Shown here: piece by piece, positions 63,196 through 63,721 of the stretch
Layout: each line of letters begins with the position of its first letter
Numbering within the stretch: position 1 is the stretch's first letter
Notes under the pieces: model-generated
Databases searched by the model: none
What the model saw: the letters and a program-made list of their open reading frames with translations, nothing else
What the model was told of the DNA's origin: nothing
DNA from: Gallionella sp.
GTDB lineage: Bacteria; Pseudomonadota; Gammaproteobacteria; Burkholderiales; Gallionellaceae
Length of the DNA: 64,000 bases
Assembly (NCBI GenBank): GCA_028710565.1
Contig: JAQTTV010000018.1
Span: forward strand, 1 to 64,000
Reading direction: 5' to 3'
Made by a program: the position numbers and the translations under genes

Positions 63196-63721
63196 GGTTC
63201 TATGTGATTTACAGTGGCTGAACAAAACTCCCTCTCCTTCAAGGGGAGGGTTGGGGGTGGGGATGGGGTAAAGATGAAGGCTCAAACAAACAGCACGATC
63301 ATCGGCAGACGGCTTCAGCGAACACTGCGCAACCAGATGACCGATGCGGAAATGCGGTTATGGCAACGACTACGCAGTCGGCAACTCGCGATCTGTAAAT
63401 TCCGCCGTCAGCACCCTTATCTGGATTATGTGTTGGATTTTGTCTGTCTGGAAAAGTGCTTGATTGTTGAGGTTGATGGCGGGCAGCACTTAGAAAACGA
63501 GCGAGATCAAGTACGAGATTGGCGTTTACAGGAAGCTGGATTTCGGGTGTTGCGGTTCTGGAACAACCAAGTTTTGCAAGAAACGGATGCGGTGGTCGAG
63601 GCTATCTGGATCGCTTTACAGAACGAGGCGGAGATACCCCATCCCCACCCCAACCCTCCCCTTGAAGGGGAGGGAGATTGCGCACTTGTGCCACGATGAG
63701 CCACTATGATTCACATAGGGC
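63196..63721 (+). mobile_element. 526-bp TIR-bounded element carrying a DUF559 endonuclease ORF
   Basis: Left ggttctatgtgatttacagtg; right cactatgattcacatagggc; inverted REP-like palindromes flank the ORF; ends match 47550..47726. Confidence 0.75.
63274..63699 (+). CDS. DUF559 (Vsr-like) endonuclease domain protein
   Basis: LRNQMTDAEMRLWQRLRSRQLAICKFRRQHPYLDYVLDFVCLEKCLIVEVDGGQHLEN; C-terminal tail PHPHPNPPLEGEG encoded by the right-hand palindrome. Confidence 0.9.
   Translation: MKAQTNSTIIGRRLQRTLRNQMTDAEMRLWQRLRSRQLAICKFRRQHPYLDYVLDFVCLEKCLIVEVDGGQHLENERDQVRDWRLQEAGFRVLRFWNNQVLQETDAVVEAIWIALQNEAEIPHPHPNPPLEGEGDCALVPR

What the first reader, a model, noticed from the sequence alone, without database searches (positions are those of the whole stretch)
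63196..63721. DUF559 endonuclease gene packaged in a TIR-bounded, palindrome-framed element: candidate new class of mobile element
Seen directly: an intact DUF559 ORF (DFVCLEKCLIVEVDGGQH motif) lies between two inverted copies of a GC-rich unit (ccctctccttcaaggggagggttgggggtggggatgggg / ccccatccccaccccaaccctccccttgaaggggaggg). Outside these are imperfect TIRs ggttctatgtgatttacagtg and cactatgattcacatagggc. The ORF's C-terminus is encoded by the right palindrome, so gene and repeat are physically fused. Established: DUF559 is a Vsr/restriction-endonuclease-like fold, and RAYT transposases mobilise REP/REPIN palindromes by a different chemistry. Inference: DUF559 may act in trans on this palindrome/TIR family as a RAYT-like but unrelated mobiliser, or the element may be a homing-like selfish unit.
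Basis: partly seen in the sequence, partly recalled or inferred. Interest (0 to 1): 0.85.

Follow-up and report, generated by a model that had tools for sequence, protein, structure and literature searches.

The report
Nuclease gene tied to palindromic repeats
The small nuclease gene sits in a DNA element that is moved by an ordinary insertion-sequence enzyme, but the gene itself (DUF559) turns out to be tied, across many bacteria including E. coli, to a widespread family of palindromic repeats whose origin has been unexplained.

Summary
The element (63196-63722) lies between cas4 and cas1 of a type I-C CRISPR operon in a Gallionella-type genome.

First layer: its TIRs are ends of an ISL3-family insertion sequence. 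The genome holds at least 19 paired copies, most without DUF559, with 8-bp target duplications. Relatives show empty sites, an intact ISL3 with the same ends exists, and stubs of a resident ISL3 transposase lie at contig ends. So it is a non-autonomous ISL3 element, not a new transposon class.

Second layer: DUF559 and the palindromes belong together without the TIRs. Of 98 DUF559 genes from about 90 genomes, 54 are flanked by strong inverted repeats, against 0 of 1,072 control ORFs. Palindrome counts across 399 genomes follow DUF559 (median 35 against 0), not RAYT transposases, also within families. In sampled E. coli, strains with ycjD (DUF559) have a median of 25 copies against 5 without. 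The palindromes are the known intrastrand-triplex (TM/PIT) motifs, arranged as REPIN-like pairs, for which no mobility gene was known. I found no paper linking them to DUF559.

Most likely DUF559 is the dedicated nuclease of this repeat family, working like RAYT/REP with unrelated chemistry. The association is shown; the mechanism is inferred.

The parts
63196..63722 (+). Whole non-autonomous ISL3-type element carrying the palindrome-DUF559-palindrome unit
   Evidence: Paired TIRs; empty site in G023, where window 63167 joins 63736 in L180
63196..63216 (+). Left TIR GGTTCTATGTGATTTACAGTG
   Evidence: Recurs genome-wide; same form as ISL3 ends in L116 and at own contig ends
63702..63722 (-). 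Right TIR, consensus GGCTCTATGTGAATCATAGTG; outermost bases degenerate here (CACATAGGGCA)
63188..63195 (.). Left copy of decayed 8-bp target duplication, AACTAAAC
   Evidence: 6 of 8 identical to the right copy; the family has 8-bp duplications; empty target AAATGAAA in G023
63723..63730 (.). Right copy of decayed 8-bp target duplication, AAATAAAA
63230..63270 (+). Left palindrome (63230-63250) with inward G-rich tail (63251-63270): REP-like half, TM/PIT-type motif
63638..63674 (-). Right palindrome (63654-63674) with inward tail (63638-63653), inverted copy
63274..63699 (+). DUF559 (PF04480) Vsr/homing-endonuclease-fold gene; its 3' end is encoded by the right palindrome
   Evidence: PF04480 E=3.7e-35; 3HRL E=1.9e-24 and best fold match; omega 0.09-0.15 among the closest intact copies
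47550..47726 (+). Sibling MITE: same TIRs and palindrome, no DUF559
58138..58240 (.). REPIN-like unit (palindrome-tail-spacer-tail-palindrome, CTAGCAGG type) between cas3 and cas5
62324..62944 (+). cas4 on the left of the element (insertion context)
   Evidence: PF01930 E=3e-25
63766..64000 (+). cas1 on the right of the element, start of gene (insertion context)
   Evidence: PF01867 E=1.5e-16

Best explanation
Two nested units. Outer unit: a non-autonomous (MITE-like) ISL3 element, mobilised in trans by the resident ISL3 transposase with 8-bp target duplication; DUF559 plays no part in that step (shown by comparison). Inner unit: palindrome-tail-[DUF559]-tail'-palindrome', a REPIN-like pair of triplex-type (TM/PIT) palindromes with the nuclease gene in the spacer position. 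DUF559 is the dedicated endonuclease of this dispersed palindrome family (association shown). Most likely it recognises the hairpin that the GC-rich palindrome forms in single-stranded DNA, nicks or cuts there, and host repair or replication then copies the palindrome unit, with or without the gene, to the break, in a homing-like or RAYT-like way (inferred). Gene-less pairs are its non-autonomous derivatives (inferred).
For: Outer: TIRs 45 against 0 in the control; 19 element pairs with flank identity 109/152 against a shuffle mean of 57 and maximum of 86; empty sites in G023 for this copy, for the DUF559 copy L073 and for MITE L086; intact ISL3 IS with the same ends and TSD AAAATAAA in L116; own ISL3 tnp stubs at contig ends. 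Inner: flanking inverted repeats at 54/98 DUF559 genes (score >=20) against 0/1072 control ORFs; palindromes within 350 bp on both sides of 51/98 genes against 0 of 732 random placements; genome counts median 35 against 0, MWU p=2.6e-42, exceeding all 5000 within-family permutations; DUF559+/RAYT- genomes median 23, DUF559-/RAYT+ median 1, family-fixed-effect t=12.7 against 0.9; E. coli ycjD+ median 25 copies against 5, p=2.5e-8; Deinococcus and cyanobacterial plasmid examples; REPIN-like pairs with related spacers in genomes without a RAYT above the family cut-off; nuclease fold; purifying selection.
Against: 39 of 98 DUF559 genes lack a flanking repeat at score 16, including the enterobacterial f30 genes tested. 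23 genomes have 10 or more palindromes without a strong DUF559. The palindrome next to a DUF559 gene is not always the subtype dispersed in that genome (e.g. G361). No palindrome unit was caught moving without ISL3 or other MITE ends. E. coli and cross-genome counts are only partly corrected for phylogeny. No biochemistry exists in what I found.
Confidence: 0.62

Rival explanations
1. DUF559 is the transposase of the whole TIR-bounded element.
For: DUF559 copies lie inside the TIRs in this genome.
Against: Most TIR elements lack DUF559; the TIRs and 8-bp duplications match an ISL3 IS that has its own transposase; DUF559 genes L001, L002, L003 and L006 lack the TIRs.
Confidence: 0.03
2. The palindromes are REPs moved by RAYT; DUF559 is a bystander.
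For: REPIN-like architecture; genomes with both genes have the most palindromes.
Against: RAYT without DUF559: median 1 palindrome; DUF559 without RAYT: median 23; RAYT effect t=0.9 with family fixed effects. The own genome has no RAYT over the cut-off (best E 7e-9) but 243 palindromes.
Confidence: 0.04
3. DUF559 is a host repair or tolerance nuclease that makes hairpin- or triplex-forming palindromes survivable; the palindromes spread by other means (here ISL3-type MITEs).
For: Explains the genome-level correlation, including enterobacteria where the gene is not flanked by the repeats; Vsr-like fold; palindromes ride in several MITE families here.
Against: Does not explain why about 55% of DUF559 genes are themselves framed by inverted palindromes or occupy the spacer position of the pair.
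Confidence: 0.18
4. DUF559 genes are homing-type passengers that preferentially insert into pre-existing palindromes; the palindromes spread independently and DUF559 does not help them.
For: Gene placed between palindromes; nearest non-DUF559 fold match is homing endonuclease I-Bth0305I; DUF559 sits at different places in the hpa operon of two Deinococcus species.
Against: Palindrome-poor genomes would be expected where only the repeats' own spreader is missing; no such other gene was identified.
Confidence: 0.12

Closest known systems
ISL3-family insertion sequences and their MITEs
   Same: TIRs, 8-bp target duplication, transposase-less copies, intact IS with the same ends in L116, resident transposase stubs
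   Different: Carries a palindrome-DUF559 passenger unit
REPIN/RAYT (REPtrons; Bertels and Rainey 2011, PMC3116915)
   Same: Two short palindromes in inverted orientation around a spacer; gene flanked by the palindromes; copy number follows the gene
   Different: The gene is a DUF559 Vsr/homing-fold nuclease, not a HUH tyrosine transposase; palindromes are CCCTCNCC-type with a triplex-like tail
PIT / intrastrand triplex motifs (TM, TMECO; Holder et al. 2015, PMC4666352)
   Same: Consensus CCCTCNCCCN3-6GGGNGAGGGN3GGGNGAGGG, dispersed, partly in inverted pairs, variable between strains
   Different: That paper states no mobility gene was found near them and the origin is unclear; here DUF559 is linked to them
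DUF559 / YcjD / NGO0050 (PF04480, PDB 3HRL)
   Same: The same protein family and fold
   Different: No function or repeat association found in the literature searched
Homing endonuclease I-Bth0305I and Vsr endonuclease
   Same: Related fold (Foldseek prob 1.00 and 0.92)
   Different: No intron or mismatch-repair context; only 22-24% identity over the aligned region

Membership tests
ISL3-family MITE / non-autonomous ISL3 element | Terminal inverted repeats matching an ISL3 IS | tested here: met
   L116 IS ends GGCTCTATGTGAAATACAGTG / GGCTCTATGTGATTTATAGTG around an ISL3 transposase; own contig ends carry the same TIR forms next to tnp stubs
ISL3-family MITE / non-autonomous ISL3 element | 8-bp target-site duplication | tested here: met
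   Family-wide 4 exact and 4 at 7/8; permutation p<1e-5. This copy is decayed (6/8).
ISL3-family MITE / non-autonomous ISL3 element | Insertion boundaries proven by empty site | tested here: met
   G023 cas4-cas1 interval lacks it; also L073 and L086
ISL3-family MITE / non-autonomous ISL3 element | Full-length ISL3 transposase in the same genome | tested here: inconclusive
   Only N- and C-terminal stubs at contig ends, consistent with a collapsed multicopy IS
REPIN/RAYT system | Short palindromes in inverted pairs dispersed in many copies | tested here: met
REPIN/RAYT system | RAYT (HUH tyrosine) transposase as the associated gene | tested here: not met
   Palindromes follow DUF559, not NF047646; not filed as a member
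REPIN/RAYT system | GTAG or CGTC tag at the palindrome end | not tested
   Tag classes described in PMC3733652; not scored here
PIT / intrastrand-triplex motif | Hairpin CCCTCNCCC..GGGNGAGGG followed by a G-rich third strand | tested here: met
   General pattern counted; window copies are a near variant with stem CCCTCCCC and tail TTGGGGTGGGGATGGGG
PIT / intrastrand-triplex motif | Forms a DNA triplex | not testable with these tools
   Shown in vitro for E. coli motifs by Holder et al. (PMC4666352)
DUF559 nuclease (PF04480) | Profile match and nuclease fold | tested here: met
   E=3.7e-35; Foldseek to 3HRL TMt 0.89
Homing endonuclease | Cleaves its own insertion site and spreads by repair | not testable with these tools
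   Fold similarity only

The most novel reading that the evidence does not exclude
DUF559 is the mobiliser of the TM/PIT palindromes: a second REP-like system, unrelated to RAYT, in which a Vsr/homing-fold nuclease replicates palindrome pairs in trans across Pseudomonadota, Deinococcus and cyanobacteria, including E. coli YcjD acting on its roughly 24 TM copies.
Probability: 0.45. Interest if true: 0.93.

Novelty: new variant of a known kind. Interest (0 to 1): 0.82.

Why it matters
Triplex-type palindromes are among the commonest dispersed repeats in bacteria, and the main paper on them says their origin is unclear and that no mobility gene was found near them (PMC4666352). Tying them to one nuclease family gives a candidate enzyme, a function for a 'DUF' that is present in E. 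coli K-12 (ycjD), and a direct knockout or cleavage test. It would also show that REPIN-like selfish repeats arose with two unrelated enzymes, RAYT and DUF559.

Tried and rejected
IS1595-family transposase as partner: present in the genome, but its ends (GGCTCTGTCGCAAAATCATATTG) differ from these TIRs; dropped once the ISL3 was found. Phage carriage: only 2 weak phage hits. Azospirillum chromids as polymorphism test: all orthologous sites occupied or decayed, no empty site. A second phylum through the genome search: a locus is not accepted as centre; replaced by plasmid examples. Rfam: only a sub-threshold wcaG hit on the palindrome, taken as chance. Strict cognate matching of flanking and dispersed palindrome subtypes: clear in the own genome and G254, not clear in G361, so not claimed.

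Full report
Observation. The window is the first 64,000 bases of contig C69 (65,649 bases) of a 3.27-Mb genome. The near relative G023 has contigs of 80,221, 61,915, 37,603 and 41,818 bases, equal in length to records of MAG Gallionella sp. STC_38, so the host is most likely Gallionella-type. The region is a type I-C CRISPR operon: cas3, cas5, cas8c, cas7, a PIN/DUF2281 pair, cas4, then the element, then cas1. The DUF559 ORF, the two inverted palindromes and the TIRs are all there.

Outer layer: an ISL3 element. The TIRs occur 45 times with at most one mismatch and never in the reversed control. They pair into 19 elements of 78-877 bp, most without DUF559 (sibling in the window at 47550-47726). 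Flanks show 8-bp duplications: 4 exact, 4 with 7/8; total identity 109/152 against a shuffled mean of 57 and maximum of 86 in 100,000. G023 has an empty site between cas4 and cas1 and at two further copies, one with DUF559. A scan of 85,488 genomes found the same ends in Methylococcaceae, Gallionella, Nitrosomonadales and others, many on gene-less elements with 8-bp duplications, and one on an intact 1,275-bp IS with a 414-aa ISL3 transposase and TSD AAAATAAA (L116). The host carries stubs of that transposase, next to the same TIRs, at contig ends, as expected if a multicopy IS collapsed in assembly. The element is therefore a non-autonomous ISL3 element with a passenger.

Inner layer: DUF559 and palindromes. 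Other DUF559 genes of this genome have no such TIRs, yet L001, L002 and L003 are framed by inverted copies of other GC-rich palindromes; L006 is not. Across Pseudomonadota, 98 DUF559 genes were compared with 1,072 ORFs from the same loci: inverted-repeat score of at least 20 in 54 against 0, of at least 16 in 59 against 6. With a palindrome regex, 51 of 98 have one within 350 bp on both sides, against 0 of 732 random placements. These loci were taken from the best-scoring DUF559 matches, so the percentage may not hold for divergent members. Plasmid DUF559 genes of Deinococcus and cyanobacteria show the same framing in several cases.

Genome level. In 399 Pseudomonadota genomes, CCCTCNCCN{1,16}GGNGAGGG is found a median of 35 times where a strong DUF559 is present (117 genomes) and 0 times elsewhere (282); the reversed pattern has medians of 1 and 0. 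MWU p=2.6e-42; shuffling DUF559 labels within families never reached the observed value in 5,000 trials. RAYT was the obvious rival. Medians are 0 (neither), 1 (RAYT only), 23 (DUF559 only) and 60 (both); with family fixed effects DUF559 has t=12.7 and RAYT t=0.9. Exceptions exist on both sides.

Strain level. E. coli ycjD is a DUF559 gene between sapF and fabI, present in 3,372 of 5,426 complete genomes, and its 3' end also runs into a palindrome. In 60 records sampled evenly down the ranking, those with ycjD have a median of 25 matching places (13-37) and those without have 5 (1-25), p=2.5e-8. This is not corrected for clonal structure, and the place counts include the ycjD locus.

Architecture. 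Dispersed copies often come as palindrome-tail-spacer-tail'-palindrome' units of about 90-120 bp, like REPINs. In the own genome, G023 and the fully spaced G254 pairs the tails point inward; in G108 they point outward. G254 and G108 have no RAYT above the family cut-off, and their spacers are similar between copies, so the units were copied. In the window DUF559 occupies the spacer of such a unit.

What the palindromes are. They fit the potential intrastrand triplex (PIT/TM) motifs; the E. coli consensus is CCCTCNCCCN3-6GGGNGAGGGN3GGGNGAGGG (PMC4666352). That paper reports five inverted pairs among the 23 motifs of MG1655, calls the origin unclear and states that no mobility genes were found around them. 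In Enterobacter sp. 638 about 100 copies were presumed terminators (PMC2869309). Searches of the PMC library for DUF559 or ycjD together with palindromic, REP or triplex terms gave no paper making the link; subscription papers are not covered.

Protein. The closest solved relative is 3HRL (NGO0050, 'endonuclease-like'). The predicted fold matches it best (TMt 0.89), then homing endonuclease I-Bth0305I and, weakly, Vsr. The closest intact copies in the genome show dN/dS of 0.09-0.15, so the protein is or was under selection.

Mechanism, and what is inferred. Shown: the ISL3 origin of the outer element, its insertion boundaries, and the DUF559-palindrome association at gene, genome and strain level. 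Inferred: that DUF559 recognises and cuts the extruded hairpin, and that repair then copies the unit. A tolerance or repair role for DUF559, or homing of DUF559 into pre-existing palindromes, remain live rivals. No palindrome unit was seen to move on its own here.

Noticed in passing
contig C69:64951-65010 of the host (L036, L094), just past the window: A second, truncated ISL3-type DUF559 element remnant lies just before what reads as the start of cas2 (MLIITYDVS), so the adaptation genes of this CRISPR operon were hit at least twice.
   Followed up: partly
L064, L065, L078, L079, L093 and others in the host genome: A second MITE (TIR CATAGGTATCTACACAACTTT) is inserted in the loop of the palindromes, apparently with a 9-bp duplication CCTTCAAGG; its transposase was not identified.
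   Followed up: no
L066, L067, L072, L079 in the host genome: A third MITE family (TIR GAATGGCACTTACTTAAG, duplication ATATCAGCTCC in L066) carries REPIN-like palindrome pairs.
   Followed up: no
window 61704-62316: A DUF2281/PIN (VapBC-like) toxin-antitoxin pair lies inside the cas operon between cas7 and cas4; in the near relative G023 the alignment breaks after window 61923 and resumes at 62318, so the PIN gene appears to be absent there.
   Followed up: no
window 58138-58240: REPIN-like unit between cas3 and cas5; an upstream in-frame start would add palindrome-encoded residues (PHPNPPPARGRE) to Cas5.
   Followed up: partly
L373, L374, L375 (Deinococcus plasmids): Palindrome-framed DUF559 genes sit at different positions of the hpa operon in two species and between paaD and paaZ in a third, which suggests independent insertions.
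   Followed up: partly
G023 C112 about 34948-35278 (L312:14948-15278): ISL3-type element with an internally deleted DUF559, an apparent intermediate between the gene-bearing element and a MITE.
   Followed up: partly
E. coli, sapF-fabI interval (L377-L386): In the five ycjD-less E. coli strains read, an efflux operon lies next to sapF in place of ycjD.
   Followed up: partly
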